Shown here: one piece after another, positions 684 to 42,005 of the stretch
Numbering within the stretch: the stretch's first letter is position 1
How the letters are laid out: the number at the start of each line of letters is the position of its first letter
Assembly (NCBI GenBank): GCA_026414565.1
Contig: JAOAIT010000028.1
Location: forward strand, 1 to 64,000
DNA from: Verrucomicrobiia bacterium
Lineage (GTDB): Bacteria > Verrucomicrobiota > Verrucomicrobiia > Limisphaerales > Fontisphaeraceae
DNA length: 64,000 nucleotides
Direction: 5' to 3'
The notes under the pieces: model-generated
The model's input: the letters and a program-made list of their open reading frames with translations, nothing else
Database searches by the model: none
What the model was told of the DNA's origin: nothing
Translations under genes and position numbers: made by a program

Positions 684-787
684 TTCTTCAATTCAATTTT
701 TTCTTCATTCATTTTTTTTGTGGGCCGGCCCAGCCCCAAGCCCCGTTGTCGAACCAGGCCGGCCCCGCGGCCTTCACCGCAATCCAT
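680..787 (-). CDS. very small coupled ORF between capsid and connector genes
   Basis: A 35-codon frame whose ATG overlaps the capsid stop (TAATG at 785-789) and whose TGA overlaps the connector start (GTGA at 680-683). The product would be Gly/Arg-rich in its first half and Lys/Glu-rich at its end. It could be a real mini-protein, or only a device that keeps ribosomes moving from the capsid gene to the connector gene. No family is recognised. The double overlap is what argues it is translated. Confidence 0.4.
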   Translation of the reverse strand: MDCGEGRGAGLVRQRGLGLGRPTKKMNEEKIELKK

Positions 788-2067
788 TACGAAGCCGGCA
801 GCGTCAGCACCGCAAACGGCTTCAACGTGGTCGAGCCCGTGGTCGTCTTGATCCGCGTCCCAGCCCGCATCGTCGCCCGGATGCTCACCTGATTCTCCGC
901 GAACTTCAACGCAGTGGTCTGCTCCAGCTCCATGTCCTGAGCAACGCCCACCGCCAGCCCCTGCGGATCGCCGAACACCGCCACCTTCGCATTGACCGCA
1001 TCCGTCGTCGGCGCGGCATCGCTCAGCACAACCGGGTAACCCAGGATCCGGCCAATCGCGCCAAAACTCGGCGCCTCGATCGCCGAAATGAAGATCGGCC
1101 GCCCCGTGGTGTCCTGCACCGTCATGGCCTTCGCCAGGATCGCAGGATTCATCCACCATTGGCCCCCACGCCGCAGCACCGCCGGGCTCACCGTGCTCAA
1201 GCACTTCGCCCAGTCATCCACCTTCGTCTGCGCCACCGTCACCCGGCCCGTCGCCGCCGTCGCCTTCAGGTTGGTGTTCAACGCAGCGGCTTCAAAAATC
1301 CCGGTGTACCCGCCATCCGTCTGATTCGTCGCACCGGCCGCCGAGATGCAGGCCCAATCCAGCCCGCCCGCCACCGACTGCGCGATCTGACGCAGCACAA
1401 AGCTCACCACGTCCACCCCCGCATCCTGGATCAACTCCCGGCTCACATGCAGCAGTGAACCAATCGTCTGCAGGCTCAGCGTCAGGCTGGCCCCGCTGAA
1501 GTCCCCCGCCGTGATCGCCGTGCCCTCCGCCGCGCCCGAGCCGGCCCCGATCCAGTACGCCGCCGGCCGCGCCGTCGCCACCGGAATGCTCACCGTCCGC
1601 GACGGCACCCGGATCACACCGAAACCCGCCCACACGCCATACTCCGCCAGAAGATGGTAGATGTCCTCCGCCACCGCCGTCGGGATCGTCGCCGCCCCCA
1701 CCCCGGAATCACTGCCCGTCAGCGCGCGCTCCACATGCTCCGGCAGTTTCGCGTGCGGGAAGGCAATCTTTTTCAACAGCCCCAGCATGATCTCGCGCTT
1801 CTCCTCATTCCCCGTGATGCGATTCAGGATCGCATCCTCCCGGCTCTTGAACACACTCGACCGCTCCCGCTCCAGCGCCGCCAGCGTCCGCTTCAAACTC
1901 GCCAACAATTGCGCGTGATCCGCCTGCTGGTTTTTGAGTCGGGTCAACTCCTCAAAGGAGTTCTTCACGCTCTTGTCCAGCGAATCCAGATTTCGCACCA
2001 GCTCCGCCTGCTGACCGCGCAAGCTCTCCACACCCTCAATCACCGTATCTTCAAACGTTTTCATCAT
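787..2067 (-). CDS. major capsid protein, HK97 family
   Basis: A 426-residue protein. Residues 1-105 are charged and helical with heptad-like leucines, matching the scaffold-like delta domain that HK97-type capsid proteins lose on maturation. From about residue 118 the chain has the HK97-fold flavour: a S-D-S-G-V-G-A-A-T-I-P segment (where processing normally occurs), then a hydrophobic beta/alpha core with N-P-A-I-L and G-R-I-L-G-Y-P-V patterns and a late V-A-V-F-G-D-P-Q-G strand. The prohead protease gene lies just upstream, as expected. Two adjacent ATG codons (2067 and 2064) are both possible starts. This is not a Mu gpT-type capsid gene, which matters because the transposition genes here are Mu-like. 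Confidence 0.85.
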   Translation of the reverse strand: MMKTFEDTVIEGVESLRGQQAELVRNLDSLDKSVKNSFEELTRLKNQQADHAQLLASLKRTLAALERERSSVFKSREDAILNRITGNEEKREIMLGLLKKIAFPHAKLPEHVERALTGSDSGVGAATIPTAVAEDIYHLLAEYGVWAGFGVIRVPSRTVSIPVATARPAAYWIGAGSGAAEGTAITAGDFSGASLTLSLQTIGSLLHVSRELIQDAGVDVVSFVLRQIAQSVAGGLDWACISAAGATNQTDGGYTGIFEAAALNTNLKATAATGRVTVAQTKVDDWAKCLSTVSPAVLRRGGQWWMNPAILAKAMTVQDTTGRPIFISAIEAPSFGAIGRILGYPVVLSDAAPTTDAVNAKVAVFGDPQGLAVGVAQDMELEQTTALKFAENQVSIRATMRAGTRIKTTTGSTTLKPFAVLTLPAS

Positions 2068-2109
2068 GTCACTCTTCCTTTCTTTTTTTAAGTTTGTTGC
2101 ACTGCAATT

Positions 2110-2826
2110 TCACAGCCCTTTCAAGGCCGCCTCGAATCTCCGCAAAAACATCAGCCGCGCCCGCTCTTTTTCGGCCAGCAGCGCGCGAGCAGGTCCATCT
2201 GCGCTGTGCCCCATCACGTTGTGTTTCCGCGAAAGAAATTCAATGTCCTCATCACTCAGCGCGCCCGCCTTGTAGCTCCGCGCCACCGCATTCGGATTCG
2301 CCCCAATCACCACCGCGCTCAACTCAATCTGCTCCTGAGCCAGGTAGATCACCTCCACCTCCTGCGCCTCCAGCCCCAGCTCCGCCGCCACCGCCGCAAA
2401 CTGCCCGGCTTGGCTCGGATTCCACCGGCTCACCCACTCCACAGGCTGAAACCCCACACTCACCGCCCGCAGGTATCCGGCCCGCGTCATCGCCCAGCCG
2501 ATCTGCGCCAGCCGATTCTCCGGCACATCAATCGCCCACTTCACGATCTCGATCAGCTTCCGCCCACGCACCCCATAATCCACCACGCGCCCCAGCAGTG
2601 CATCCACCGTGTCGTAACGATGGCTGTCCACAAACGGCGCATTTTTCTCGAATCGCGAAAACCTCCATCCATCCGCCCGGATCACCTCGCGGTAACTGTC
2701 CACCGTCTCATCGCTCGCGATGTATTCCACCAGTCCCTCGCGCTCATCCAGCACCCGCACCGCCGGATGCAGCACCCGCCTCACCATCTCATTCTCCAAC
2801 TCAATCTTCATCTCTTTCATTCTCAT
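2110..2826 (-). CDS. phage prohead protease, HK97/S78 family
   Basis: A 238-residue protein that processes the capsid shell during head maturation. The family's His motif is visible as F-V-D-S-H-R-Y-D (His69) and its Ser motif as L-R-A-V-S-V-G-F-Q-P (Ser123), followed by the usual I-E-L-S-A-V-V-I-G-A-N-P-N-A strand. I chose the ATG at 2826 because it overlaps the portal stop as ATGA (2823-2826); a longer frame from 2883 would add a low-complexity Arg/Gly tail that reads through the portal 3' end. It lies between portal and capsid genes, the standard order for HK97-type heads. Confidence 0.85.
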   Translation of the reverse strand: MRMKEMKIELENEMVRRVLHPAVRVLDEREGLVEYIASDETVDSYREVIRADGWRFSRFEKNAPFVDSHRYDTVDALLGRVVDYGVRGRKLIEIVKWAIDVPENRLAQIGWAMTRAGYLRAVSVGFQPVEWVSRWNPSQAGQFAAVAAELGLEAQEVEVIYLAQEQIELSAVVIGANPNAVARSYKAGALSDEDIEFLSRKHNVMGHSADGPARALLAEKERARLMFLRRFEAALKGL

Positions 2827-4994
2827 GCTTCCTCCTCTTCTTCTCCGCCCGCGCCCTCTTCGCTCGCCGCCACATGGGTGCAATGGCAGTTAATCACTTC
2901 CGCCGCCGGCCCGTCCGGATCTCCCGGAAATCTGCAACCATTCGGGAATACCTCATCCATCCCCACCACCATCCCATCCAGTTCACGATGACTCGGCCTC
3001 ACATTGGAGGCTCCACTCGTCAGCCACTTTTTCCACTTCACCCCGGCCTGTTTCATCCCCAGCTCGCGCCCCTGGCCAAAGCACACATTCGTCTCCGTAA
3101 TCGCGATCACCTCCGCCCGCCCGCGCCCCACCTCATTGAAAGCCGCCCGCACCCGATCACTCAGCTCGCTCAATGTCTCTCCAGCCTCCAGCCCCGCCTC
3201 CAATTGAGCTTTAATCTGCTCGAAAATGTTCTGCGCCGCCCCTGAAATCCGGTTTTCACGGCCCCGCAAAAACTCCAGCACCGGCTCCGGCGGCAGCGCA
3301 AAAGCCCCACCATCTTTCTGCAACTCCTCCCACCCCTCGCGCCCCGCCGTCCCCAGGCACGATTGCCACAGCGGCTTCAGTCCCACAACCAAACCCTCCC
3401 TGAAATTCTTCAGATCAAACATCAACTCCGCCGCCACCGCCCGCACCGCGCCCGCGCCTGCGCCCGCGCCCGGCCCGCGGCCCTCGGGCCCCAGCTCACG
3501 CTCCAGCTTCGCCAGCACCTCCGCCCGCGCCCGCATCAACTCCCGGCCAATCCTCCCCAGGAACTTTTTCTTCCAGGCCCGGCGCCGCACCATCTGCTCC
3601 CGCCATTGCGGGCGCGCCGCGCGCATGGCCTCAAGCGTGCACCCACAATCGCACCGCCGCGCCTCCGCCCGCTCCCGCAGCGCCCGCACCATCAACCCCG
3701 CTGCGCCCGCGCTGCCCGCGCCGCCCGCCGCCGCCGGACGATTCTCATCCAGCTCCGGCATCGTCTCCGGCGCCGCCACCTCCGACGCCGGCACCACTCC
3801 CATCGGCAGGTAGCCAACCTCCCAGCCCTCAAACTCCGGCAGGCCCAGCTCCAGGTACTCATTGATCAATTGCATCGGCATGCCCGCCGACCACAATTTC
3901 ATCCCCACCTCAATCCGCTCCCGCCGCACCATCTGCATCGTGCTGTGCTCATCCCAGTCAAACTCCGCCCGCACCTCGGCCCCAACAATCCGCCGGCTCA
4001 CTTCACTAATTGCCCGCGCCAGTTTCGCCGCCACCGGCTTGCAGGTTTCCTCGATCAGAAGATACCTGTCGCTCGCGCTGCCCACGGAGTAGCTGGCCTG
4101 GATGTCCGCCATGCTCGGCGGCACCCCAAACGCCAAAAATATCTCGTGCCGATTGCCCAGCCGCTGCTGCACAAAAGCCGCATCCGGCGCCTTGATCCGC
4201 GAATCTTCAATCTGAATCTCCCCCGCCATGAAAATCGGCCGAAAATCTCCCCGCTGATTGGCCAATCGCTTGGCCCGAAATTCCCGCACGATCATCTCCC
4301 GCTGCTCCTGCGTGGGCAGCCCGCCCTTCGCAATGATGATCGGCCCCGTGTCCCCATTCGCCGCCGCCAGGTGCCGCGCAAACCTCGACTGCAGCCAGTC
4401 TGTCTCCGCCGCCAGCCGCGCCGCCCCCATCTCACTCAGCCCACGAAAGTCACTGTACGGATTCCACTCACGCACATGCACCACCTGCTCCGGCACCAGC
4501 CGGTGCGTCCACCCTCTCCCATCCGTGAACACCCAGCCAATCAACGACTCCCCATCCGTCACCTCCCGCATCCTATCCGGCCGCGCCACAATCAGCGGCC
4601 CGCGCACCGCCCCCGGCACCAGCCAGGAATCATCCATGATCCAGAAAAATTCCCCAGTGAGTTTCAGCCAGCCCACGCTGGCCTCCACCAGCTCCTCAAA
4701 CCCCATCCCCCGCGCCGGCGCCCGCCAAAAAGCCCGCAGCTCCTCACTGTCCGGCTCCAGCACCAGCGGCACCGACGCAATCGGCCCCGCCACCCGTTTG
4801 ATCGCCCGCTGCACCCACACGCTCTCCGCAAAGGGCCGCGCCAGCACCTCCCCCGAAACCATGGGCTCCAACCCCATCAAAAATTCCGCCATCGAACCAG
4901 ATCCGCCCCCCGACCCGGCCCCGCTCCGCCCCGTCAACCGGCCCCAGGCCCGCTGCACCACCCCCAAAACCCCATTTTTCTCTTTGGCGCTCAT
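2823..4994 (-). CDS. portal protein fused to Mu F-like head morphogenesis domain
   Basis: About 723 residues. The first roughly 430 residues resemble HK97-type portal proteins: a G-P-I-A-S-V-P-L segment, an E-F-F-W-I-M strand, V-H-V-R-E-W-N-P-Y and the G-V-P-P-S-M motif. A Pro/Ala-rich linker containing a Cys cluster (R-C-D-C-G-C) follows. The last 120 or so residues match Mu gpF-like minor head proteins: T-E-T-N-V near the start, W-L-T-S-G-A-S-N-V-R-P-S-H-R-E-L-D-G, and the closing A-A-E-V-I-N-C-H-C. ATG 4994 is preferred because A-A-G-G-T-G lies 5 bases upstream and it follows the stop at 4996; an upstream ATG at 5051 lacks a ribosome site. Portal and gpF are separate genes in Mu. Confidence 0.8.
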   Translation of the reverse strand: MSAKEKNGVLGVVQRAWGRLTGRSGAGSGGGSGSMAEFLMGLEPMVSGEVLARPFAESVWVQRAIKRVAGPIASVPLVLEPDSEELRAFWRAPARGMGFEELVEASVGWLKLTGEFFWIMDDSWLVPGAVRGPLIVARPDRMREVTDGESLIGWVFTDGRGWTHRLVPEQVVHVREWNPYSDFRGLSEMGAARLAAETDWLQSRFARHLAAANGDTGPIIIAKGGLPTQEQREMIVREFRAKRLANQRGDFRPIFMAGEIQIEDSRIKAPDAAFVQQRLGNRHEIFLAFGVPPSMADIQASYSVGSASDRYLLIEETCKPVAAKLARAISEVSRRIVGAEVRAEFDWDEHSTMQMVRRERIEVGMKLWSAGMPMQLINEYLELGLPEFEGWEVGYLPMGVVPASEVAAPETMPELDENRPAAAGGAGSAGAAGLMVRALRERAEARRCDCGCTLEAMRAARPQWREQMVRRRAWKKKFLGRIGRELMRARAEVLAKLERELGPEGRGPGAGAGAGAVRAVAAELMFDLKNFREGLVVGLKPLWQSCLGTAGREGWEELQKDGGAFALPPEPVLEFLRGRENRISGAAQNIFEQIKAQLEAGLEAGETLSELSDRVRAAFNEVGRGRAEVIAITETNVCFGQGRELGMKQAGVKWKKWLTSGASNVRPSHRELDGMVVGMDEVFPNGCRFPGDPDGPAAEVINCHCTHVAASEEGAGGEEEEEA

Positions 4995-4995
4995 T

Positions 4996-5175
4996 TCACC
5001 TTGTGATCCACCCGCCAGACCCTTTTGCAAAACGCCGGAAACCGTTTGCATTTTGATTTTTTTTTGCGGCGAGACATCCGATAGCGGACCGCTCCATCCT
5101 GTCGCTTATAAACGATTTTAGCGCGGCCACCCACCCAGCCGCTCCGCCCGACCGCATTTTCCTGGCTTCATTCAT
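4996..5175 (-). CDS. possible small phage ORF between terminase and portal
   Basis: A 59-codon frame starting at ATG 5175, with GAGG about 10 bases upstream, and ending one base before the preferred portal ATG. The product is basic with no recognisable motif. It fills an otherwise empty 190-base interval in a tightly packed operon, which is the main argument for it. It could equally be leader sequence. Confidence 0.3.
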   Translation of the reverse strand: MNEARKMRSGGAAGWVAALKSFISDRMERSAIGCLAAKKNQNANGFRRFAKGSGGWITR

Positions 5176-5188
5176 CTTTTTTTCGCCC

Positions 5189-6550
5189 TCACACCAGCTC
5201 CGCGTGCAACCGGATCGCCCGCCCCACCTCCCGCGCCGCCCGCGCCGCCAGTGCCAGCGCCGTGCACCGATCCGCATGCCCATCCGCCGTGTGCGGCGCC
5301 CGGTACGTGATCCCGCCCCCCTGCAGCCCCACCCGCTGCACCGAATGCAAATCCTCACGCACCGCCCGGCTCACCGGCACCCGCACCCGCCGCTCCTCAA
5401 AAGCCATCCGCAACTTCCCAAAAATCTCATTTTTCAAGAGATTGCTGAAATTGCACAATTCCACCTTCCCCCACCTGTGGCCATCGGGCCGGTATTCGCC
5501 AAACCCATGCACCAGGTAATCCCCCAGCCCCACCCCCGGCCCGGTATAATCCACGCAGCACAGCTCCACCGCCGCCAAACGCGCCTCCAGCAACCGCACC
5601 TGCTCCGGCGTGCTCAGCCCCTGCATCACCAGCACCTCCCGCGTGATCCATTGCTCCCCCAGCAGCTCCAGCGTCCAGGCCACACTTAGATCTCGCTTCC
5701 GCGCGAAATCCAGCCCCATCACCAGCCGCCGCCCGCGCGCGCCCAGCTCCCAAAACTCCGCCGGCTGCGCCTCCGCAGCCTCCACGCTTTCGCATCCCGC
5801 AATCAATTCATAGCTGAGGAGCACCGCGCTCGAATCCAGAAACTCACACTCAAATTCCTGCGCCCAGCCCTCCGGATCATTCAGCCCGCGCCGCAATTCC
5901 TCCACATTCACCGGCAGCCCCGCCGCCGCCGCTTCATAAATATTGCAGCGATGCCGCCGCCAGCCCGATGCCTCCGCATTCTCCCACAAATCCGCGAATT
6001 TATTGCCCCGACCATTCGGCGTGCTCACCACTCGAATCTTGAACTCGCCCTTCAACGGATTGGCTATGCTCGGGAAAATCGCCCGCCAAATCGCATCCGG
6101 CGACTCGTGAAACGCGAATTCATCCAGCACCAAGTTCGCGCTGTACCCGCGCGCCGTGGCCGGATTCGCCGGGATCGCCACCAACCGGCTCCCATTGCCC
6201 CATTTGATCTCCGCCGCCTTCAGCAGCGCCTCCGCCGCGTCCCGAATCTCCGCGTAATCCGCCACCGCCAGCTTGAACGCCTCCGCCCACTCCCGCGCCT
6301 TCAGCATCCACTCCAGGGCCTGCCGCTCGCCCGCGCTCAGGCAAACCCAGGTCGTCTTTCGCGCCAGGCAATCCGCCACTGCCTCCGCCGCCGTCGCAAA
6401 GCTCTTTCCCGTCTGACGCGCCCAGCAGCCAATCTTGAATCGCGCCCCATCCTCCACCCAGGCGCGCTGGTACGGCAGCAGCAGCTCCAGCGGACTGGCC
6501 ACCGCGCCACCCGCGCCTTTCTTCGATCGCACTTTTCCGCTGCTGCTCAT
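5189..6550 (-). CDS. terminase large subunit
   Basis: A 453-residue DNA-packaging motor. Walker A is visible as A-R-Q-T-G-K-S (residues 44-50), Walker B as L-V-L-D-E-F (Asp143, catalytic Glu144), and a coupling motif as V-S-T-P-N-G near 175-180. The C-terminal nuclease begins with M-G-L-D-F-A-R-K-R-D (Asp281) and ends with the G-H-A-D-R pattern typical of Mu gp28-like terminases. The start is ATG 6550; the open frame extends further upstream only through the small-subunit gene in another frame. It sits between the small subunit and the portal, as in Mu-like and HK97-like packaging modules. Confidence 0.9.
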   Translation of the reverse strand: MSSSGKVRSKKGAGGAVASPLELLLPYQRAWVEDGARFKIGCWARQTGKSFATAAEAVADCLARKTTWVCLSAGERQALEWMLKAREWAEAFKLAVADYAEIRDAAEALLKAAEIKWGNGSRLVAIPANPATARGYSANLVLDEFAFHESPDAIWRAIFPSIANPLKGEFKIRVVSTPNGRGNKFADLWENAEASGWRRHRCNIYEAAAAGLPVNVEELRRGLNDPEGWAQEFECEFLDSSAVLLSYELIAGCESVEAAEAQPAEFWELGARGRRLVMGLDFARKRDLSVAWTLELLGEQWITREVLVMQGLSTPEQVRLLEARLAAVELCCVDYTGPGVGLGDYLVHGFGEYRPDGHRWGKVELCNFSNLLKNEIFGKLRMAFEERRVRVPVSRAVREDLHSVQRVGLQGGGITYRAPHTADGHADRCTALALAARAAREVGRAIRLHAELV

Positions 6551-6561
6551 TTTTTTTTCGC

Positions 6562-7134
6562 TCACTTCACGCTCAGCCCGAAAATCTCGCGCATCCGCTG
6601 CATCTTTTCCTCCGCGCTGAGCCCTGCATCCTGCACCACCCCCTGCGCCGCATCCGCCTGCGCCGCCCGCCGCTCCAGCACCGCCACCCGCCGCTCCTCC
6701 AAAATCAGCTCCTGCCGCTTCACCGCCAGCCGCTCCGCCTCCAGCACCTGCCCCATCATCGGCCCCGCCACCCGCAAAAATTCGGGATCCGCCGCGCCCG
6801 CGCTGGCCAACTGCATCACCAGCACCCTGAATAGCTTGATCAGCGCCTCCACGCTCGGTGCCGGGTTTTTCCCGTACTCTTTTTCGCACTGGCGCATCAT
6901 CTCCGCGCCGCTCGCAATGCTCCGCAGGATCCGCTCCTGCAGCTCCCGCGCCCGCCGGCCCTCCAGCCAGTTCGCCAGCGCCGTGCGCGAAATCTTCACC
7001 CCCCGCTCCCGCAGCCACACCAAAGTTTCATCCAGCGTGTGCCCCTCGCCAAAACGCGCCAGCTCCACCTGCACCTCCGGCGCCAGCTTGTCCAGCACCG
7101 CATCCCCGCGCCGCTTTTTGATGTTCAAGCTCAC
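6562..7134 (-). CDS. Mu gp27-like protein, probable terminase small subunit (DUF3486-like)
   Basis: A 190-residue helical protein. The N-terminal third contains L-D-E-T-L-V-W-L-R-E-R-G followed by a helix-turn-helix with S-R-T-A-L-A-N-W-L, the pattern of DUF3486/gp27 proteins that precede the large terminase gene in Mu-like phages. The rest is an Ala/Glu/Arg-rich coiled coil. It starts with GTG at 7134, overlapping the upstream stop as GTGA. Recognition of the pac site is the presumed role; direct evidence is limited to motif and position. Confidence 0.7.
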   Translation of the reverse strand: MSLNIKKRRGDAVLDKLAPEVQVELARFGEGHTLDETLVWLRERGVKISRTALANWLEGRRARELQERILRSIASGAEMMRQCEKEYGKNPAPSVEALIKLFRVLVMQLASAGAADPEFLRVAGPMMGQVLEAERLAVKRQELILEERRVAVLERRAAQADAAQGVVQDAGLSAEEKMQRMREIFGLSVK

Positions 7135-9875: not shown

Positions 9876-9890
9876 TGGATTTTTTCCAAA

Positions 9891-9923: not shown

Positions 9924-10022
9924 ATGATATATCACCACACCCCTCACCACCCATTTTTGCCCGCCGACAAGGCCCCGCTCCAAACCCCCAACAGCAATCA
10001 AGCCCTTATAACAGATAAAATT

Positions 10023-10097
10023 ATTTCATCGTGAAATGATTTTTTTGTAAGTGCCTAATCTCCAAAGCCTTAGAGAAAAACTATTTCACGATGAAAT
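10023..10097. promoter_or_regulatory. two mirror-image palindromic operators 60 bp apart
   Basis: ATTTCATCGTGAAAT (10023-10037) and ATTTCACGATGAAAT (10083-10097) are exact reverse complements of each other; each is itself a 6-bp inverted repeat around a 3-base centre. Their centres are exactly 60 bases apart, suiting cooperative or looping binding of one regulator. Confidence 0.6.
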
Positions 10098-10166
10098 AAT
10101 TTCCGCCCCACCCGGCGCCGCCTCGGACCCGCCTTCACCATCCCCGGCCCTCACTATACTATATAA

Positions 10167-10648: not shown

Positions 10649-10696
10649 ACTAAAACGTATATCAGAAAAAAATTATCTAACAATGAAAAAAAGTGC

Positions 10697-10724: not shown

Positions 10725-10732
10725 ATTGCCGG

Positions 10733-10915: not shown

Positions 10916-11103
10916 TCCCGATGTTTCTAACCATTTTGTGGTCCTGTTTCATCCTTCACGGCTGCCGCCAGGCAGCCGCCCGCACTTCAGCCAGCCATGG
11001 CGCCGGCTCCACCCTCCTGCGCCGCCATGCTCACGGCTCAAACCCATTCTCCTCTCCAGCGCTAAAGCCGGTGGAGGGGGCCATTTCACCATGTGCCCAT
11101 TGA
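10912..11103 (+). CDS. possible small secreted or lipoprotein ORF
   Basis: A 63-codon frame whose ATG overlaps the upstream stop (ATGA at 10912-10915). The N-terminus is hydrophobic and ends in a Cys (M-F-L-T-I-L-W-S-C-F-I-L-H-G-C), like a lipoprotein signal. The rest is low-complexity and overlaps the next start by 13 bases. It may be real or only a coupling leader. Confidence 0.35.
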   Translation: MIPMFLTILWSCFILHGCRQAAARTSASHGAGSTLLRRHAHGSNPFSSPALKPVEGAISPCAH

Positions 11104-11513
11104 CCACCAACATCGCCGCCGCCGCGGCCCTGCTCAAAAAGCCCACTCACCGGATCATGGAAATGATCGAGTCCGGTGAAATCTCATGGGCATTAAACGT
11201 TGCTGCGCCGGAAATTGGTCGGCGCGAAGTCCGCATTCCGACCTGCAGCATTCTGGCCTGCGCCGAAGGCCGAGAATTCAACCCACAGCCGCGCGACCTG
11301 GCCAAGTCCCTGTTTGGCGGCTCCATCGTGGAAAATGGCATTCCGGCTCCCAGATTCTACACTGCCCTGGGCATCACCCACGGGCACTTTTACAATCTCG
11401 TCCGGGCGGGCGCGATCGCCCTCTCCCGCGCCCCCCATCGCGGCGCCTCAGGCGCCGCCATCATCCCGTTTTCCGCCGCCGTTCAATTTTTGGAAAAGCG
11501 TCGCATCTCATGA
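11091..11513 (+). CDS. early phage protein with two excisionase-like helix-turn-helix segments
   Basis: A 140-residue protein from ATG 11091, with GGTGGAGGGGG upstream. Residues 5-30 (A-A-A-A-A-L-L-K-K-P-T-H-R-I-M-E-M-I-E-S-G) and 90-135 (L-G-I-T-H-G-H-F-Y-N-L-V-R-A-G-A-I ... P-F-S-A-A-V-Q-F-L) both resemble MerR/Xis-type winged helices that read a helix and then an E-x-G-x-I or R-x-G-x-I wing. Probably DNA-binding; role unknown. Its stop overlaps the next ATG. Confidence 0.6.
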   Translation: MCPLTTNIAAAAALLKKPTHRIMEMIESGEISWALNVAAPEIGRREVRIPTCSILACAEGREFNPQPRDLAKSLFGGSIVENGIPAPRFYTALGITHGHFYNLVRAGAIALSRAPHRGASGAAIIPFSAAVQFLEKRRIS

Positions 11514-12220
11514 ACATCCAACCAGCCGAAGTCCAGCTCCCTGAAGTATCCAACTGCTCCGATCCTTGGGGTCAGGTCAGTCGCTACGCGCTGCTCGCTG
11601 CCAGATTCATGCATGCCAGCCTCGCCTGCCAGGCCATGGCCGGCTTCATCCTGATTGAACTTCGCAAAAATTTCGCCGTCCGCAAACCCGGCCGGCCTTC
11701 ATCATCATCAATCTCAGCCGAGCTTGATTGGGAAGATGCCTGCTTCGATGCAGGCATCAGCGCCACCACCGCCTGGCGCTGGATGAAGCTGGCCCAGGCC
11801 ATCAAGCCGCGGCTCCGCCGCCTCGGGGCCGAAGAACGGCTCAGAGAACTCATCAACTCAAGCCCGTCAACGTGGAACCAAGACGAGACCGATCTTGTAT
11901 TCAAATCCCTGGAGAAAATCACCGACGGGAAAACCCAGCTCGACTTCCTCAGTGAGATCGGCCTCGCCAAGCGCGCCCCAGGCGGCCCCGGCGGCGCGCG
12001 CAAAAACGATGCCGGAGCGCCCGCGCCGACTCCAGCACTGGCACCAGCCACCGATTTCACCGCCATCGCCATCCGCGACTGGGGTGAGATCCAGCGGCTC
12101 CTGGAATCCTACGACGCCGCCGCCATGTTCTCCCACCTCAACCAAGCCCTCATTCAAGCTCAATGCGCTGTGCTTGAAACCGCCCTGCAGGCCCGCCGCA
12201 GACACTTGATTGAAAAATGA
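11510..12220 (+). CDS. early phage protein, DUF3102-like helix-turn-helix
   Basis: A 236-residue protein starting at ATG 11510 (ATGA overlap). The middle has W-E-D-A-C-F-D-A-G-I-S-A-T-T-A-W-R-W-M-K-L-A, a helix-turn-helix like that of DUF3102 proteins common in phages and plasmids. A Pro/Ala/Gly-rich linker near 155-185 leads to a helical C-terminus. It directly precedes the transposase and overlaps it by 4 bases, so it may assist transposition or act as an early regulator. That role is inferred from position only. Confidence 0.6.
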   Translation: MNIQPAEVQLPEVSNCSDPWGQVSRYALLAARFMHASLACQAMAGFILIELRKNFAVRKPGRPSSSSISAELDWEDACFDAGISATTAWRWMKLAQAIKPRLRRLGAEERLRELINSSPSTWNQDETDLVFKSLEKITDGKTQLDFLSEIGLAKRAPGGPGGARKNDAGAPAPTPALAPATDFTAIAIRDWGEIQRLLESYDAAAMFSHLNQALIQAQCAVLETALQARRRHLIEK

Positions 12221-14094: not shown

Positions 14095-14095
14095 G

Positions 14096-15154
14096 ATGAA
14101 CGACCAAGCCCCAACCAACCAACCTCCGGAGTCAACACCACTCACCATGATGCACACCAGGCGCTTTCGCGTGCCTGGAGACATCGTGAACCGTTCGACT
14201 TCAGATCTCCCGGATGAACAGCGATCACTCATCCGCTGGCTTCACGCCCATGCGGCAGAGAATGATCTCTCCATTGATGACCTAGCCAAACTGGTCCGCT
14301 ACGATGCCTCAACCCTCCATCGCGTTTTCCACGGAAAATACGATGGCAACCTTTCCCGTGTCTGCGACGAGATCAAGGCCTTCAAGGCCTTGCACGAAGA
14401 GCGCAACAAGGGCCGGCGCCTCGGCTTCATCGAGACTGCTCTAGCCAGGAAGATCTGGCGCGTCTGCGATGCCGCACTCGAGTTTCAGCGCATCGCCGTC
14501 ATCATCGGCGATTCGCAAACCGGAAAGACGGCCGCACTTGAAAGGTATCGTGAAGATCACAACCACGGCAGCACCATCTACGTCCGCTGTCCCACCAGCG
14601 GGACGCTCCGCCTTTTTCTCGATGAAATGGCCCGCGCCATGCGGATTTCACCGAACTTGGTAAAGCACGACCTCATGGAGCGCCTCCTCAGATCATTCGA
14701 CGACCGAATGCTCCTAATCGTTGATGAAATTCATCAATGTTGTTACGGGAGGGCGGACTCTGCTCTACGCACAATAGAATTCATCCGCGAAATCCATGAT
14801 CGAACAAAATGCGGTGTCGTTTTGTGCGGGACATCCGTTTTTGATGAGGAGATGGAATCAGGACGTTTCTCGCGCATCCTTGCACAAACCAAGCGGCGGA
14901 GGCTTTGCAAGCTCATGCTCCCCAATTCACCGTCCGCCGAAGATCTTAATGCCTTCGCCGCAGCCTACGGCCTGCCCCCGGCCACCGGGCAGCATGCGAA
15001 GCTTCAGGCCGACATCATTCGCACCGAGGCCCTCGGCATGTGGCTCTGCATCCTCCGCATGGCCGCCAAGATCGCGGCCAAACGCAAGGAGAAAATGAAC
15101 TGGGACCACGTCTCCGCCGCCCACGCCGGCCTCCGCTCACTCGAAACCATTTAA
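14096..15154 (+). CDS. MuB-like AAA transposition ATPase
   Basis: A 352-residue protein. The N-terminal domain has a Cro/cI-like helix-turn-helix at 58-80 (S-I-D-D-L-A-K-L-V-R-Y-D-A-S-T-L-H-R-V-F), as in MuB. The ATPase core has Walker A G-D-S-Q-T-G-K-T (138-145), Walker B L-L-I-V-D-E (Asp210, Glu211) and a sensor-like V-V-L-C-G-T. It delivers target DNA to the transposase and protects the phage's own DNA from reinsertion in the Mu system. Its start follows the transposase stop by one base. Confidence 0.85.
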   Translation: MNDQAPTNQPPESTPLTMMHTRRFRVPGDIVNRSTSDLPDEQRSLIRWLHAHAAENDLSIDDLAKLVRYDASTLHRVFHGKYDGNLSRVCDEIKAFKALHEERNKGRRLGFIETALARKIWRVCDAALEFQRIAVIIGDSQTGKTAALERYREDHNHGSTIYVRCPTSGTLRLFLDEMARAMRISPNLVKHDLMERLLRSFDDRMLLIVDEIHQCCYGRADSALRTIEFIREIHDRTKCGVVLCGTSVFDEEMESGRFSRILAQTKRRRLCKLMLPNSPSAEDLNAFAAAYGLPPATGQHAKLQADIIRTEALGMWLCILRMAAKIAAKRKEKMNWDHVSAAHAGLRSLETI

Positions 15155-15160
15155 TCCACC

Positions 15161-15334
15161 ATGAACACCATCATCCAACTCTTCCGCATCTTGCAATGGT
15201 ATGCCTTCACCGAGACCAGGTGCGCCTGGTGCCGCCCATATCGCCGCATCCGCCGCGCCTGGCTCTGGCCAAAACGCATCTCTCATGGCATGTGCCATGA
15301 TTGCTTCGTCAAACTCATTTCCAACCCCAATTAA
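15161..15334 (+). CDS. small zinc-ribbon-like protein
   Basis: A 57-residue frame starting at ATG 15161, six bases after the MuB-like gene. It has C-A-W-C in the middle and C-H-D-C near the end, a plausible four-Cys metal site, with a basic Arg/Trp-rich region between. No family recognised. The next gene begins three bases after its stop, which supports expression. Confidence 0.55.
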   Translation: MNTIIQLFRILQWYAFTETRCAWCRPYRRIRRAWLWPKRISHGMCHDCFVKLISNPN

Positions 15335-15337
15335 AAA

Positions 15338-15556
15338 ATGAAACACTCGCTCAGACTTCACTTGGAAAACCTCTCCGCAGAGGAATTGAACTTCATCACA
15401 TCAATCCTCAAAAAGTTCACCGAGGATGACCCCAAAGTCCGCCGCATGATCATCCGCGGCGAAGTCTCCATTCTCGCCCGCGATGGTGGGCATCCCATGT
15501 TCATCCCAACTTTCATCCCCAAAGTTCAACACCACCTTCCCCACCACCACGACTAA
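15338..15556 (+). CDS. small early phage protein of unknown function
   Basis: A 72-residue protein with an acidic helical first half (L-S-A-E-E-L-N-F-I-T-S-I-L-K-K-F-T) and a His-rich end. No family recognised. It lies in a tight run of early genes, 3 bases after the previous stop and 10 bases before the next start. Confidence 0.55.
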   Translation: MKHSLRLHLENLSAEELNFITSILKKFTEDDPKVRRMIIRGEVSILARDGGHPMFIPTFIPKVQHHLPHHHD

Positions 15557-15566
15557 TCCTGATCCC

Positions 15567-16070
15567 ATGAAAAAAACCACACAACCCACAACCCGCGACG
15601 AAGCCGTCGAGCTGCTCGGCCAAATCCGCGCCGCCACCATCAACCTCCGCCACCACCAACTTGATCGTGAATCCCGCATCAAGGCCATTGATGATGAATT
15701 CCGGCCACGAATCGAATCGTTGCAGGAGAAAATCGAATCCATGTCTGCTGCCCTTGAATCATGGGCTGAATCCAACCCCGCCGAATTCGGCGCCATCAAA
15801 AGCATCGAATGTGCTCATGGGCGCTTCGGATTCAGGATCTGCCCACCCGCAGCCAGGTGCATCCGGCCTTTCACCTGGGCCAAAGTGCTCGAAATGATGG
15901 AGCGCGATCAAAATTTCCACAAATTCATCAGGACAAAAAAGGAGGTTGATCGCGAAGCCCTCATTTCCGCACGTGAATCCATCGGCCAGGATCAGCTTAA
16001 AAAGATTGGTGTTCGCATCGAGCAGGACGAGATCTTTTTCATCGAACCAAGAATCGAAGAATCAACCTGA
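15567..16070 (+). CDS. gam: Gam-like host-nuclease inhibitor
   Basis: A 167-residue protein. The first 70 residues form a coiled coil with I-N-L-R-H-H-Q-L-D-R-E-S-R-I-K-A-I-D and E-S-L-Q-E-K-I-E-S, the DNA-end-threading helix pattern of Mu Gam/bacterial Ku-related proteins. A beta domain with H-G-R-F-G-F-R-I and a final helix-strand with V-D-R-E-A-L ... L-K-K-I-G-V-R-I-E-Q-D-E-I-F-F-I-E-P follows, typical of Gam C-termini. It binds DNA ends and blocks exonucleases. ATG 15567 is chosen because the frame upstream reads through the previous gene. Confidence 0.8.
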   Translation: MKKTTQPTTRDEAVELLGQIRAATINLRHHQLDRESRIKAIDDEFRPRIESLQEKIESMSAALESWAESNPAEFGAIKSIECAHGRFGFRICPPAARCIRPFTWAKVLEMMERDQNFHKFIRTKKEVDREALISARESIGQDQLKKIGVRIEQDEIFFIEPRIEEST

Positions 16071-16093
16071 TTCAACCAAAACCCAAGCCCCAC

Positions 16094-16513
16094 ATGAAAA
16101 ATGCGCTCATACAAATTCCTCAACCGCCGACGGCTCCCAGGCGCTGCCTGGCTTGGACGCCAGATGAGATCATCGGCCTGCGAGTCGGTCTTTTCGCCGC
16201 CCAAACCACAGGAAAGTTCCGCGATGATCTCATTGAAAAAGCAATCATCGCAATCACCGAAATCTCAGGCTACTCCCGCGAAGAAATCCTCTCGCGAAAA
16301 CGCGATGAACACCACGCTTTAGCTAGAATGATCATCATGTGGATCGCTGTCCGCGTTGCAAACGCCACGTTCAGCGAAGCCGCACGCATTTTTGGTCGTC
16401 ACCACGGAGCGATCATGAATGCAGTCTATCGAATTGACGCCTTTCGTGATACCCGGCCCGGATTCGCTGAGTCGCTCGACCGACTTGTTCAAAAAATCAC
16501 GGCCGAAACCTAA
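16094..16513 (+). CDS. stand-alone DnaA domain-IV-like DNA-binding protein
   Basis: A 139-residue protein. Residues 45-115 resemble the C-terminal DNA-binding domain of DnaA: I-S-G-Y-S-R-E-E-I-L-S-R-K-R, then A-R-M-I-I-M-W-I-A, then F-S-E-A-A-R-I-F-G-R-H-H-G-A-I-M-N-A-V. The last part aligns with the DnaA signature, seen as G-R-D-H-G-T-V-L-H-G-C in the host DnaA encoded at 40617; the Asp is His here. No ATPase domain is present. It may bind DnaA boxes or phage-specific sites, to recruit or block host replication initiation. That role is inference. Confidence 0.75.
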   Translation: MKNALIQIPQPPTAPRRCLAWTPDEIIGLRVGLFAAQTTGKFRDDLIEKAIIAITEISGYSREEILSRKRDEHHALARMIIMWIAVRVANATFSEAARIFGRHHGAIMNAVYRIDAFRDTRPGFAESLDRLVQKITAET

Positions 16514-16515
16514 TC

Positions 16516-16998
16516 ATGCCAACACCGAAACAAAAAGCCTGGTATTGGCGGGAATGGGCCGCCGTCGTCGCCGAATGCAAGCGCGCCGGCATCCAGGTAC
16601 CGGACCGCCACGAACTCCATCGCCGCGCACTGGGACACGATTCAAGCATGCTCGAACTCGATAACCACGAGCTCGATCTCGTCATCGCCGAATTTCGCTC
16701 GTGGAGCCAGCCCGATGACCTCCAGGCCCAACTCCTACCAGCAGCCCAGCAGCGGAAAAGAAAAATGTGGAAGTTAAACCAGCTTTTAGGCGAGCTTGCA
16801 GTCCTTTTGCAACAGGATGGAAATGAATCCGAAAAAACAAAATCAGCCCGCGCCAATCGCTACCTTTGGGCCATCCTGCGCGATAAGTATGGGAATCGTC
16901 CACCTGAAGATCTCCGCGACGCCGAACTAAGCCTGCTGCTGGTGGATCTGACTCGCGCCATTTCACGCCGTCGCGAATCAGTTGACGAACCTTTTTAG
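16516..16998 (+). CDS. GemA/gp16-like early protein
   Basis: A 160-residue protein. Residues 5-65 (K-A-W-Y-W-R-E-W-A-A-V-V-A-E-C ... L-D-N-H-E-L-D-L-V-I-A-E-F) resemble the DUF1018 domain of Mu gp16/GemA regulators. The second half is helical with an R-Y-L-W-A-I-L-R-D-K-Y segment. In Mu, GemA influences late transcription and host DNA supercoiling; transferring that function here is tentative. It begins two bases after the previous stop. Confidence 0.5.
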   Translation: MPTPKQKAWYWREWAAVVAECKRAGIQVPDRHELHRRALGHDSSMLELDNHELDLVIAEFRSWSQPDDLQAQLLPAAQQRKRKMWKLNQLLGELAVLLQQDGNESEKTKSARANRYLWAILRDKYGNRPPEDLRDAELSLLLVDLTRAISRRRESVDEPF

Positions 16999-17000
16999 CC

Positions 17001-17351
17001 ATGCTCGAACAACTCGATCTCCAATTCACCCGCCGTGGCCGGCGCATCCTGGCCCAACGCGGCGGCATGGATCGAGTCCTCCAAATCCTCGCCTCCGCCC
17101 CAGATTGGCTCAGCGCCGGCGCCCTCTGCCGAGAGCTCGGCCTCCCACCTACCGAGCACAACAAACGCTGGCTCCGCCTCCTGGCCGAAAACTCCGACGG
17201 ACAAATCATCTCCGGCCAGCTCGGCTACCGCCTAACCACTAAGGCCTCACTCCAAGAGATCGAGGAATCCGCCACTTGGCTCGAGCACCAGGCCCGCCGC
17301 ATGGCCGATCGCGCCCGCGCCATTCGCCGCCGCGCCCACCGCCTGATCTAG
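17001..17351 (+). CDS. winged-helix-like early phage protein
   Basis: A 116-residue protein, last gene before the prophage end. Residues 23-75 read as a winged helix (V-L-Q-I-L-A-S-A-P-D-W-L-S-A-G-A-L-C-R-E-L, then W-L-R-L-L-A-E and G-Y-R-L-T-T). The C-terminus is an Arg/Ala-rich helix. No specific family. Its stop lies in the first unit of a 15-bp tandem repeat. Confidence 0.55.
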   Translation: MLEQLDLQFTRRGRRILAQRGGMDRVLQILASAPDWLSAGALCRELGLPPTEHNKRWLRLLAENSDGQIISGQLGYRLTTKASLQEIEESATWLEHQARRMADRARAIRRRAHRLI

Positions 17352-17373
17352 CCTCCTGTGATCTAGCCTCCTG
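17344..17373. repeat. perfect 15-bp tandem repeat at the prophage end
   Basis: TGATCTAGCCTCCTG occurs twice head to tail (17344-17358, 17359-17373). The first unit contains the last stop codon of the early operon. Possible transposase-binding repeats or a slippage duplication. Confidence 0.7.
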
Positions 17374-17391
17374 GATCAAAATCATCCCACC

Positions 17392-17460
17392 GAAATTAGC
17401 AGAAAATGTTGCTCAAAAATTTGTCACTTTATCGTTATCGCAGCCTATTTTGCTAATTTC
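17392..17460. repeat. inverted repeat in AT-rich terminal segment
   Basis: GAAATTAGCA (17392-17401) and TGCTAATTTC (17451-17460) are perfect 10-bp complements enclosing 49 AT-rich bases. It lies where the prophage composition ends, so it may be part of the phage end recognised by the transposase. Confidence 0.5.
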
Positions 17461-17463
17461 CCG

Positions 17464-17780
17464 CCCTCGCTAAAAAAATCCTCATAACTCCCTCATTTCC
17501 AGGCTCTTCCATCATTTTCCCGCCTTGTCCATCCCTCCCGTCATTTTCCAGAAGGGAAAATGCGGAAGGGGAAATGCAAAGTGCAAAGTGCAAAAAGGGA
17601 GGGGACGGGGGCGGTGGTTACGGTGCCGTTATGAAGTGAGGGTCTTCCGGGACTTGGGTTGGGGGGCGATTTTGGTCTAAAGATTCTTTTTTTCCTGCCG
17701 ATAGGATAGCTGAGATATTGGGCGGCCTGCCCCGGGCGGGGTGAGGGTCGCCGCATGGAGTTTGCGAGCAGGGATTTTTT
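17464..17780. other. prophage/host junction, no gene seen
   Basis: About 320 bases with no convincing coding frame. Three similar TCATTTCC/TCATTTTCC motifs occur at about 17490-17550, and a hairpin CATTTTCC (17542-17549) / GGAAAATG (17555-17562) marks the point where the plus strand changes from pyrimidine-rich to purine-rich. The exact transposition junction cannot be placed without the other end. Confidence 0.5.
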
Positions 17781-18314
17781 GTGTTGCGAGGCTGGGTCAT
17801 AGTGGTTTTAGGCATGGCGGCCGCATGGCCGGCGGGGGCGGCGTATTTGCCGCTGCTGGGGCCGGGTCCGCTGCGCTATGAGCGGCCGGTGCGGGCTGCC
17901 CGGGCGCCGGTTGCGCCGGCAGTGGAGGCCCCGGCGGCTTCCGTGGCGGAAGCGCCCAGCTCCGGGGACGCTGCGCCGCCCACGCCCCCCCCTGCACCGG
18001 CAGCGGTGGTGGAGCCAGCGCCGGCAGTTTCCACCAATGTGGCGCCTGGGCCGGTGGAAGTGTTCCCTGGGCCTTCTTTGAACGTCACCAATGTGGCGGC
18101 GCCGCCAGCGCCATCGTCGGCGCAGGTTTCGGCCGAGCCGGAGATTACGCCGCAGATGCTGGTGCAGTATTTCAAGATGCCCGCGCCCGTGGGGGGCACG
18201 AATAGTGCCGGGGTCATGGTGACCGTGCCGTTGTTTCAACCGCCGCAGCCCGGCCGGATTCCGCCCAGCTCGGCACGCTACGAGACGCCTGAACCGCGGC
18301 GGCCAGCTCCATGA
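17781..18314 (+). CDS. secreted Pro/Ala-rich protein
   Basis: A 177-residue protein starting with GTG 17781. An N-terminal signal-like helix (W-V-I-V-V-L-G-M-A-A-A-W-P-A-G-A-A) precedes a long low-complexity region rich in Ala, Pro and Val. A short ordered-looking stretch near 115-150 contains I-T-P-Q-M-L-V-Q-Y-F-K-M. It opens a four-gene run; its stop overlaps the next ATG as ATGA. Function unknown, probably periplasmic or envelope-associated. Confidence 0.65.
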   Translation: MLRGWVIVVLGMAAAWPAGAAYLPLLGPGPLRYERPVRAARAPVAPAVEAPAASVAEAPSSGDAAPPTPPPAPAAVVEPAPAVSTNVAPGPVEVFPGPSLNVTNVAAPPAPSSAQVSAEPEITPQMLVQYFKMPAPVGGTNSAGVMVTVPLFQPPQPGRIPPSSARYETPEPRRPAP

Positions 18315-39966: not shown

Positions 39967-40616
39967 GCCGCGGGGCGGCGGGCGGCGGGCGGGCCACCGC
40001 AGGTGGCGCGCGGCGCCGCGGCATGTTTGTGGGCGTGGAAAAGCCGGTTAAATTTCTCAGGGAGGGTCCACTTCGGTTGCAGAAAAATTTTCTGTACAAG
40101 TGCCGTGATGGGGGTAGGTTGGCAGTGAATAAACCCAAAGCTCATGGTGACCCCATCAGGTTGTCAGGGCGTGAATTCTTTGAAAAATCGCGGTGAATGA
40201 GGCGGGATGAGGCGCGCGGGCGCGACAGCCGTGGCGGCGCGGGGCCGAAGGCTGCAAAACCCCTGTTTTTACAGGCCGAAAAGGGCTGTGAATAAGTTGT
40301 GGAAAAGTGTTGATATATTCTACTAGGCAGGGGGGGCGCTTTGGCGTAAAACTCAGCCCGCGTTTTCGACGCACCCAGTCAAACGCCGATAACACAAGTC
40401 AAGCGAGGCTGGGGAGAGGTTTTGTCGTAAGTACTTGTCAACAGGGCAGATATGTATTGGGCAGAAGGCAAGTGCGGCATTTTTATGCGAGCTTTGGCCT
40501 GCGTGGCCAAAGCCAGTGACCGGATTTCTTGCTGGCCGCACCGGCTTGTTTGCCAGGCATATCGGGGGGACGTGAATAAATCAGGCCGCAGGGCTGGTTA
40601 ACGGGAGCAGGCAAAC
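39967..40616. promoter_or_regulatory. region upstream of dnaA with DnaA-box-like sites
   Basis: A 650-base interval with no convincing gene. TGTGAATAA (40287-40295) is a perfect complement of the DnaA box TTATTCACA; TGTGGAAAA (40298-40306) lies 3 bases further, and one-mismatch copies AGTGAATAA (40124-40132) and CGTGAATAA (40571-40579) flank them. All four read in the same orientation. An AT-rich stretch (TTGATATATTCTACTAG, 40310-40326) adjoins the central pair. This suits DnaA autoregulation or an origin, but strand composition shows no switch here. Confidence 0.55.
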
Positions 40617-42005
40617 ATGCAAGTGACTGCCGAAAAGGTGTGGGATTCGGCCCAGCAATCGTTGCGGGGCATGCTGAATCCAGACATTTACAAACTTTGG
40701 TTTGCGCCGGTGCGAGCCGTGAGTGTCACGCCCGAGGAGATTACGCTGGAGGTGCCCAATGATTTCTTCGAGGTGTGGCTCAAGGACAACTATCTGGGGC
40801 TGCTGCGGGACGCCGTGGCGCAGACCACCGGGCAGGCGCTAAACATCAAGTTCAAGACGGCGGCACCGGGCAGCACGCCGGTGCCGCCCGCGCCGGCCGA
40901 GCCGGCGCCGGGGCGGGCGGGCGGCAGCCGCGGGCGCAGCCGCAGCGCGGCGGAGGTGGACGCCATCAACGGGCACAATCGGGAGGCCCTGTTCAATCCG
41001 CGCAACACGTTTGACACGTTTGTGGTGGGGGACAACAACGTCATGGCGCACGGGGCGGCGATGGCGGTGGCGCAAAATCCGGGCAAGGCGTACAATCCGT
41101 TGTTCCTCTACGGCGGGGTGGGGCTGGGCAAGACGCACCTGCTGCACGCCATCGGCCAGTATGTGGTGGCGCACAAGAAGACGGCGCGCGTGGCCTATGT
41201 GTCCTGCGAGAAATTCACCAACGAATTCATTGACGCCATTCAGAGCGGCACGCTGGCGCGTTTTCGCAAGAAATACCGGCAGACGGATGTGCTGCTGATT
41301 GACGACATCCAGTTTTTGAGCGGCAAGGAGCGGATTCAGGAGGAGTTTTTCCACACCTTCAACGCCCTGCATGAGGCGCACATGCAGATCGTGCTGTCGT
41401 GCGACCGCCCGCCCAGCGAGATTGCGGGACTGGAGGACCGGCTGATCACGCGGTTTGAGTGGGGCATGGTGAGCGATCTGCAGCCGCCCGATGTGGAAAC
41501 GCGCGTGGCCATCCTGCGGAAAAAGCAGGAGCTGATGGGCGTGAAGCTGCCGGATGAAATCATCAACTTCCTGGCCAGCCGCATCCGCACCAACATCCGG
41601 CGGCTGGAGGGGGCGCTGACGCGGGTGGCGGCGTATGCGTCGCTGACGCGCAAGCCCCTGACGCTGGATGCGGTGGAGAATTTGCTGCGCGAGGTGCTGC
41701 ATGAGGAGGGACAGACGCATGTCACGGTGGAGGTGATCCTCAAGCGCGTGGCCGAGCATTTTGATCTGCGGCTGTCGGATTTGACCGGGCGGCGGCGGCC
41801 GGAGAACATCGCGTTTCCGCGGCAAATCGTCATGTATCTGGCGCGCGAGCTGACGGAAAGCTCGCTGAACACGATTGGCGAGGCGCTGGGCGGGCGGGAT
41901 CATGGCACGGTGCTGCACGGCTGCCGGCTGGTGAAGGACCGGATGGAGGTGGATCCCCACGTGCGCAAGCTGGTGGAGCATCTGAAGCAATCCCTGCTGC
42001 GCTAG
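40617..42005 (+). CDS. dnaA: chromosomal replication initiator DnaA
   Basis: A 462-residue protein of standard length. Domain I starts with V-W-D-S-A-Q-Q-S-L; a Pro/Ala-rich domain II spans about 85-115; the AAA+ domain III has Walker A G-G-V-G-L-G-K-T (166-173) and L-L-I-D-D-I-Q-F (Asp229); domain IV ends with the DnaA signature G-G-R-D-H-G-T-V-L-H (425-434). It binds DnaA boxes and opens the origin. The gene is not followed by dnaN; the next gene is convergent. Confidence 0.97.
   Translation: MQVTAEKVWDSAQQSLRGMLNPDIYKLWFAPVRAVSVTPEEITLEVPNDFFEVWLKDNYLGLLRDAVAQTTGQALNIKFKTAAPGSTPVPPAPAEPAPGRAGGSRGRSRSAAEVDAINGHNREALFNPRNTFDTFVVGDNNVMAHGAAMAVAQNPGKAYNPLFLYGGVGLGKTHLLHAIGQYVVAHKKTARVAYVSCEKFTNEFIDAIQSGTLARFRKKYRQTDVLLIDDIQFLSGKERIQEEFFHTFNALHEAHMQIVLSCDRPPSEIAGLEDRLITRFEWGMVSDLQPPDVETRVAILRKKQELMGVKLPDEIINFLASRIRTNIRRLEGALTRVAAYASLTRKPLTLDAVENLLREVLHEEGQTHVTVEVILKRVAEHFDLRLSDLTGRRRPENIAFPRQIVMYLARELTESSLNTIGEALGGRDHGTVLHGCRLVKDRMEVDPHVRKLVEHLKQSLLR

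What the first reader, a model, noticed from the sequence alone, without database searches (positions are those of the whole stretch)
16094..16513. Prophage-encoded stand-alone DnaA domain IV
The protein carries a DnaA C-terminal DNA-binding domain with the signature region (101-111) but no ATPase. It sits beside GemA-like and Gam-like early genes. A mobile element that transposes replicatively would benefit from steering or inhibiting host DnaA at origin boxes, or from using DnaA-like sites of its own. The Asp in the host signature is replaced by His, which may shift DNA preference.
Basis: partly seen in the sequence, partly recalled or inferred. Interest (0 to 1): 0.7.

Follow-up and report, generated by a model that had tools for sequence, protein, structure and literature searches.

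The report
Phage-carried solitary DnaA DNA-binding domain
A transposing virus lying dormant in a Verrucomicrobia bacterium carries, among the genes it switches on first, a small protein that is only the DNA-gripping end of DnaA, the protein that starts bacterial chromosome copying; related viruses carry it in the same place, so it probably lets them interfere with or imitate DnaA control, but its target is untested.

Summary
ORF 16094-16513 (+, 139 aa) is a DnaA domain IV without the AAA+ ATPase: Pfam Bac_DnaA_C 40.1 bits (cut-off 31.5), AlphaFold2 model mean pLDDT 86, VIA-align Z 16.0 to E. coli DnaA domain IV on its box (1J1V). It lies in the early operon of a Mu-like prophage, in the order MuA-MuB-Gam-[this]-GemA-like-wHTH.

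It is not a one-off. Among 70 MuB-containing loci, mostly from uncultivated viruses and Verrucomicrobiota, 19 carry a solitary DnaA domain IV, always on the MuB strand. In all 8 loci where Gam and GemA-like were also found, it lies between them. These proteins keep the DNA-docking residues best (R399, R407, R432, H434 in E. coli numbering) while several base-reading ones drift. In this copy Q408, D433 and T436 are M, H and A. It is only 19% identical to the host's own DnaA domain IV. Canonical DnaA boxes are not enriched in the phage DNA.

Best guess (about 0.4): an early accessory protein occupying host DnaA boxes. A regulator of the phage's own sites is nearly as likely. Solitary DnaA domain IV proteins were already annotated, untested, in unrelated phages.

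The parts
16094..16513 (+). Stand-alone DnaA domain IV protein (139 aa)
   Evidence: ORF; PF08299 40.1 bits; model pLDDT 85.9; Z 16.0 to 1J1V and 3PVP
16238..16435 (+). Region matched by Bac_DnaA_C in the DNA-level search
16301..16327 (+). Codons R70 to R78, equivalents of E. coli R399 (minor-groove arginine) and R407
   Evidence: profile alignment to 1j1v; retention 89% and 96% in the family
16400..16411 (+). Codons H103-H104-G105-A106, equivalents of D433-H434-T435-T436 at the start of the recognition helix
12217..14094 (+). MuA-like transposase
   Evidence: phrog_310 transposase E = 2.6e-21
14096..15154 (+). MuB-like AAA ATPase
   Evidence: phrog_296 DNA transposition protein E = 1e-36; AAA_22, TniB and weak Phage-MuB_C
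15483..16070 (+). Mu Gam-like end-protection protein
   Evidence: PF07352 90.8 bits; phrog_491
16516..16998 (+). GemA-like early protein
   Evidence: PF06252 E = 0.022, below cut-off; the iterated profile built from it includes L157, which passes Pfam GemA (32.6 bits)
17001..17351 (+). Winged-helix-like ORF, last gene before the prophage right end; relatives in many Mu-like loci
   Evidence: weak HTH_IclR; profile hits
10018..10102 (.). Pair of palindromic sites (ATTTCATCGTGAAAT / ATTTCACGATGAAAT), probable early operator
   Evidence: 34-nt inverted repeat, 88% complementary; near ORFs matching a PHROG transcriptional repressor family
787..7134 (-). Virion genes: major head protein 787-2067, protease-like 2110-2883, portal/head morphogenesis 2823-5051, terminase large subunit within 5189-7018
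   Evidence: PHROGs, ORFs
17352..17694 (.). Interval holding the right end of the prophage
   Evidence: similarity to the relative's locus without the prophage (G001) starts at 17694
40617..42005 (+). Host dnaA, 462 aa, canonical GGRDHGTV signature
40287..40306 (-). Two canonical DnaA boxes upstream of host dnaA

Best explanation
The protein is a single-domain DnaA domain IV, made early with the transposase, that binds DnaA-box-like DNA but cannot form the ATP-DnaA filament, open the origin or load helicase. SHOWN: the predicted fold, the missing ATPase, the early-operon position and its recurrence in relatives. INFERRED: by occupying host DnaA boxes (oriC, the dnaA promoter and other DnaA-regulated sites) it works as a passive competitor of host DnaA. 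It would hold back host chromosome initiation while the phage, like Mu, copies itself by replicative transposition through replication-restart proteins and so does not need DnaA. In this particular copy, changes at three base-reading positions probably shift or relax recognition of the 3' half of the box.
For: Domain IV fold with no other DnaA domain. It lies in an operon with MuA, MuB and Gam. It recurs on the MuB strand in 19 of 70 non-redundant loci and always between Gam and GemA-like when all three are found, 8 of 8. That is the SEE region, described as poorly conserved and coding for small uncharacterised proteins (PMC8705779). Its patchy presence fits an accessory host-directed gene better than a core regulator. 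Among columns conserved in host DnaAs, the best retained in the solitary proteins are R407, R399, R432 and H434; contact columns average 58% retention against 34% for the rest, Mann-Whitney p = 0.007. R399 enters the minor groove and helix 434-451 the major groove of the box (PMC5742627). Domain IV alone is responsible for sequence-specific binding (PMC5835720). Mu replication reconstituted in vitro uses PriA, PriC and DnaT (PMC3334882). Other phage proteins are known to inhibit DnaA: lambda P and prophage YfdR (PMC4776307).
Against: No binding or effect on initiation has been tested. This copy has M, H and A at Q408, D433 and T436, and only 19% identity to the host's domain IV; a box mimic might be expected to keep the host's reading residues. 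In the whole family only about 5 of 27 keep the full canonical set. The 8-of-8 figure and the 19-locus count include loci that were picked because they carry the domain.
Confidence: 0.4

Rival explanations
1. A phage-specific transcription regulator: the DnaA domain IV fold has been re-targeted to sites in the phage's own early or middle promoters, in the manner of Ner or Mor.
For: Base-reading residues drift strongly between copies. Canonical boxes are not enriched in phage DNA: 7 exact against 6.2 expected, and 169 against 170 at one mismatch or less, in loci that have the domain. In L159 and L161 the gene lies just upstream of the transposase, in the early operon. Small early DNA-binding proteins of phages are often regulators (general knowledge).
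Against: No repeated or palindromic site common to these phages was found. The likely operator at 10018-10102 lies near ribbon-helix-helix repressors. About three quarters of related phages lack the gene, which is odd for a core regulator.
Confidence: 0.35
2. A replication or transposition accessory: it marks DnaA-box-like DNA to recruit host replication proteins to the transposed copy, or biases insertion towards such sites.
For: It is encoded next to the transposition genes. Phage genes holding this domain are annotated as replication initiators. The prophage's right end lies about 23 kb from host dnaA.
Against: It lacks the DnaA domains that load helicase and oligomerise. The closeness to dnaA is a single case; in the other prophage-bearing genomes checked the prophage and dnaA lie on different contigs. 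No box array was found in the phage.
Confidence: 0.13
3. A captured DnaA fragment on its way to loss, without function.
For: High divergence, patchy presence, one contact position or more lost in many copies.
Against: Intact ORF, tight operon with a 2-nt gap to the next gene, preferential retention of R399 and R407 across 27 copies, and a recurrent position in divergent phages.
Confidence: 0.05

Closest known systems
DnaA domain IV (PF08299; E. coli 1J1V, M. tuberculosis 3PVP)
   Same: Fold over 93-95 residues (Z 16.0, rmsd 1.4-1.5 A), minor-groove arginine, R407 equivalent and H434.
   Different: No domains I-III; about 20% identity; Q408, D433 and T436 replaced; early phage gene, not a chromosomal initiator.
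Solitary DnaA-like proteins of phages not seen to be transposable (Cellulophaga phi19:3 gp013, Rhizobium RHph_N28_2, Pelagibacter HTVC203P gp22, Microcystis Mae-JY35)
   Same: 130-190 aa proteins holding this domain, annotated from the domain as DnaA or replication initiation protein.
   Different: The stretches seen show replication, recombination or methylase neighbours and no MuA/MuB operon. The window protein itself finds no match in 50,697 phage records. No functional test was found in the papers searched.
SEE (semi-essential early) region of transposable phages (Mu, B3, Leptospira prophages)
   Same: Gam, small early genes and GemA near one genome end (PMC8705779).
   Different: DnaA is not mentioned in that survey; here a DnaA domain IV is a recurrent resident.
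Phage inhibitors of DnaA: lambda P, YfdR of prophage CPS-53
   Same: Phage or prophage proteins that restrain host initiation (PMC4776307).
   Different: They act on DnaA protein; this one has a DNA-binding domain and would act on the boxes, if it acts on initiation at all.
PRK06030 (NF004686) and REP-type Y1 transposase fused to DnaA domain IV
   Same: Non-initiator uses of the domain.
   Different: The window protein matches PRK06030 only at E = 0.034 and has no transposase domain.

Membership tests
Bac_DnaA_C (PF08299) domain | Score above the curated cut-off | tested here: met
   40.1 bits against 31.5
Bac_DnaA_C (PF08299) domain | DnaA domain IV fold | tested here: met
   Z 16.0 to 1J1V and 3PVP against 6.5 for the best unrelated fold, on a predicted model
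Bac_DnaA_C (PF08299) domain | DnaA-box contact residues (R399, R407, Q408, D433, H434, T436) | tested here: inconclusive
   R399, R407, R432 and H434 kept; Q408M, D433H, T436A
Bac_DnaA_C (PF08299) domain | Sequence-specific binding to DnaA boxes | not testable with these tools
   Needs purified protein
DnaA initiator (TIGR00362) | AAA+ domain III and domain I present; score above 343.9 bits | tested here: not met
   40 bits, matched only to model positions 349-437; no AAA match
Mu-like (transposable) phage early region | MuA- and MuB-like genes in one operon | tested here: met
   phrog_310 and phrog_296
Mu-like (transposable) phage early region | Gam-like gene | tested here: met
   PF07352 90.8 bits
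Mu-like (transposable) phage early region | GemA gene | tested here: inconclusive
   E = 0.022 in the window; a member of the same iterated profile, L157, passes at 32.6 bits
Mu-like (transposable) phage early region | Mor/C late activator | tested here: inconclusive
   No match among the window genes scanned; wHTH 17001-17351 could fill the role but shows no homology to Mor
PRK06030 (NF004686) hypothetical protein | Score above 148 bits | tested here: not met
   14 bits

The most novel reading that the evidence does not exclude
Transposable phages of Verrucomicrobiota and uncultivated relatives repeatedly acquired a solitary DnaA domain IV as an early host-takeover gene that jams host DnaA boxes, which would be a class of replication-initiation inhibitors that mimic the DNA-binding part of the initiator rather than bind the initiator.
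Probability: 0.33. Interest if true: 0.75.

Novelty: new variant of a known kind. Interest (0 to 1): 0.47.

Why it matters
Phages that copy themselves independently of DnaA gain by controlling when the host fires its origin. If this small early protein occupies DnaA boxes, it is a direct, portable tool to stop bacterial initiation and a clean separation-of-function version of DnaA. If it has been re-targeted to phage sites, the family is a natural series of altered-specificity DnaA domains from which the box-reading code could be worked out. Either way it gives a testable function to a recurrent, unannotated gene of the SEE region.

Tried and rejected
Recent copy of host dnaA: rejected; identity to the own host domain is 19%, while host domains are 78% identical to each other, and in the tree it groups with L023 and L128, not with the hosts. 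Support in this 87-column tree is low.

Close homologues by sequence alone: the single protein found none in viral contigs, phages or plasmids. The conserved MuB neighbour was used instead.

DnaA-box array in the phage early region: not found. Other repeated words in these loci were coding repeats, low complexity or scattered repeats without a common motif.

Left end of the prophage: the contig starts inside it; the relative's flanking gene lies on contig C51, followed by ordinary host genes, so no junction could be shown.

GC-skew flip at 17.5 kb as evidence of an origin there: not accepted, since it coincides with the boundary between strongly skewed leftward virion genes and the host.

Targeting of insertion towards dnaA: one case at 23 kb, not testable elsewhere.

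Literature: no paper on a phage solitary DnaA domain IV was found in the held library; subscription journals are mostly missing from it.

Full report
OBSERVATION. The ORF at 16094-16513 (+) begins with ATG and encodes 139 aa; the other strand has stops. It starts 24 nt after the end of the Gam gene and ends 2 nt before the next start, so it sits in a tight operon. Pfam Bac_DnaA_C scores 40.1 bits against a cut-off of 31.5. The DnaA model TIGR00362 matches only with its last ~90 positions. The DNA-level search of the whole genome finds two such domains: host dnaA at 41.7 kb of the same contig, and this one. AlphaFold2 gives mean pLDDT 85.9, with the domain (residues ~44-137) at about 90 or more. 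VIA-align puts it at Z 16.0 on both E. coli and M. tuberculosis DnaA DNA-binding domains; the first unrelated fold is at Z 6.5. This is well beyond chance.

CONTEXT. To the left are MuA-like (phrog_310), MuB-like (phrog_296) and Gam (PF07352) genes; to the right a GemA-like gene (E = 0.022) and a winged-helix-like ORF. Leftward virion genes (major head, protease-like, portal/MuF-type, terminase) fill the first 7 kb. So it is a Mu-like prophage whose left part is cut by the contig start. Its right end lies between 17352 and 17694, where similarity to a congeneric genome (G001) begins. Host dnaA (40617-42005) lies about 23 kb away.

RELATIVES. The protein alone finds nothing in phage, plasmid or viral-contig collections. 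MuB relatives were therefore collected from genomes of the same order, genome contigs (records named Verrucomicrobia subdivision 3, Limisphaerales, Opitutaceae, Akkermansiaceae and others) and viral contigs. Profile searches of their six-frame translations gave 70 non-redundant loci with MuB, 19 of which have a solitary DnaA domain IV, all on the MuB strand. Counting only the MuB-driven collections, this is 11 of 51 viral loci and 4 of 13 genome loci, a lower bound because many loci end early. In all 8 loci where Gam, the domain and GemA-like were found, the order is Gam-domain-GemA-like. In three others (L112, L159, L161) it lies upstream of MuB and the transposase, in L159 and L161 within the early operon. 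Pfam independently confirms most of them: nine of the ten newly found copies scanned exceed the cut-off and L112 does not; L161 exceeds it and L152 does not; L025 does not. Loci without it hold C5-methylase, ThyX or small ORFs in the same slot, so the slot is an accessory region. This matches the SEE region described for transposable prophages as long, poorly conserved and coding for small uncharacterised proteins (PMC8705779).

OTHER PHAGES. Solitary domains also occur beside a terminase (L028) and in phage-like replication or methylase modules (L087, L090, L094-L096). Named phages carry 130-190 aa versions, for example Cellulophaga phi19:3 'DnaA protein', Rhizobium RHph_N28_2 and Pelagibacter HTVC203P. 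PHROGs hold only weak, mostly unnamed counterparts.

DNA CONTACTS. Alignment to E. coli 1J1V (residues 374-467) fixes the correspondence R70=R399, R78=R407, M79=Q408, H103=D433, H104=H434, G105=T435, A106=T436. In E. coli, R399 enters the minor groove and helix 434-451 reads the major groove, and R399A and T435M are defective in box binding (PMC5742627). Across 27 solitary proteins, of 49 columns conserved in host DnaAs, the best retained are R407 (96%), R399 (89%), R432 (74%) and H434 (70%); the mean is 39%. Contact columns exceed the others (Mann-Whitney p = 0.007). Q408 and T436 are kept in 41% each. So docking on DNA is conserved while base reading varies. The window copy changes Q408, D433 and T436.

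DNA SITES. Canonical boxes (TTWTNCACA) are not enriched in the phage loci with the domain: 7 exact against 6.2 expected. Word enrichment gave no common motif. Two canonical boxes lie upstream of host dnaA.

DESCENT. Identity to the host's own domain is 19%, whereas host domains share 78%. A short-alignment tree puts the window copy with L023 and L128 and away from hosts, and mixes Mu-associated and other copies, suggesting exchange among phages (support is modest).

MECHANISM. Shown: a predicted DNA-binding fold without ATPase, an early gene, recurrence. Inferred: because it lacks the oligomerisation and helicase-loading domains, any effect on initiation must come from occupying sites. Mu replication reconstituted in vitro uses PriA, PriC and DnaT (PMC3334882), so blocking DnaA would probably not hurt a Mu-like phage. 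Lambda P and YfdR are precedents for phage restraint of DnaA (PMC4776307). The patchy, accessory, Gam-adjacent position favours a host-directed role; the drift of reading residues favours own sites. I put 0.40 on host-box competition, 0.35 on a phage regulator, 0.13 on a replication or transposition accessory, and the rest on no function or something else.

LIMITS. The enrichment of contact residues uses related sequences and a contact list fixed from the literature and my own knowledge of the 1J1V complex. The synteny count includes loci chosen because they had the domain. Nothing biochemical was tested.

Noticed in passing
window 10018-10102: Two palindromic sites (ATTTCATCGTGAAAT and ATTTCACGATGAAAT) 60 bp apart in an intergenic stretch near two ribbon-helix-helix ORFs (10373-10648 - and 10739-10915 +) that match a PHROG transcriptional repressor family; likely the lysogeny/early operator.
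   Followed up: partly
window 17001-17351: A winged-helix-like ORF after the GemA-like gene has relatives in more than 20 Mu-like loci, mostly at the end of the early operon; a candidate for the missing Mor-type activator.
   Followed up: partly
L097:112-1152: REP-type Y1 transposase with a C-terminal DnaA domain IV, another non-initiator use of the domain.
   Followed up: no
L028:1273-1713: Solitary DnaA domain IV directly beside small and large terminase genes, not in a replication module.
   Followed up: no
window 1-18000: GC skew changes from about -0.38 to +0.17 at the prophage right end; probably leftward virion genes against host, not an origin.
   Followed up: partly
window 17344-17377 and 17575-17594: Short tandem repeats (TGATCTAGCCTCCTG x2.3 over the wHTH stop codon; TGCAAAG x2.9) in the interval holding the prophage right end. 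Other short tandem or paired repeats occur in related loci (GACCCTC x3 in L159 near 4333, CCTGCAACCT pairs in L141).
   Followed up: no
L151:12420-12603: Long GGTTCCGGT/GGTTACGGT-type repeat array at the contig end, following an ATG and apparently coding a Gly/Ser/Tyr repeat.
   Followed up: no
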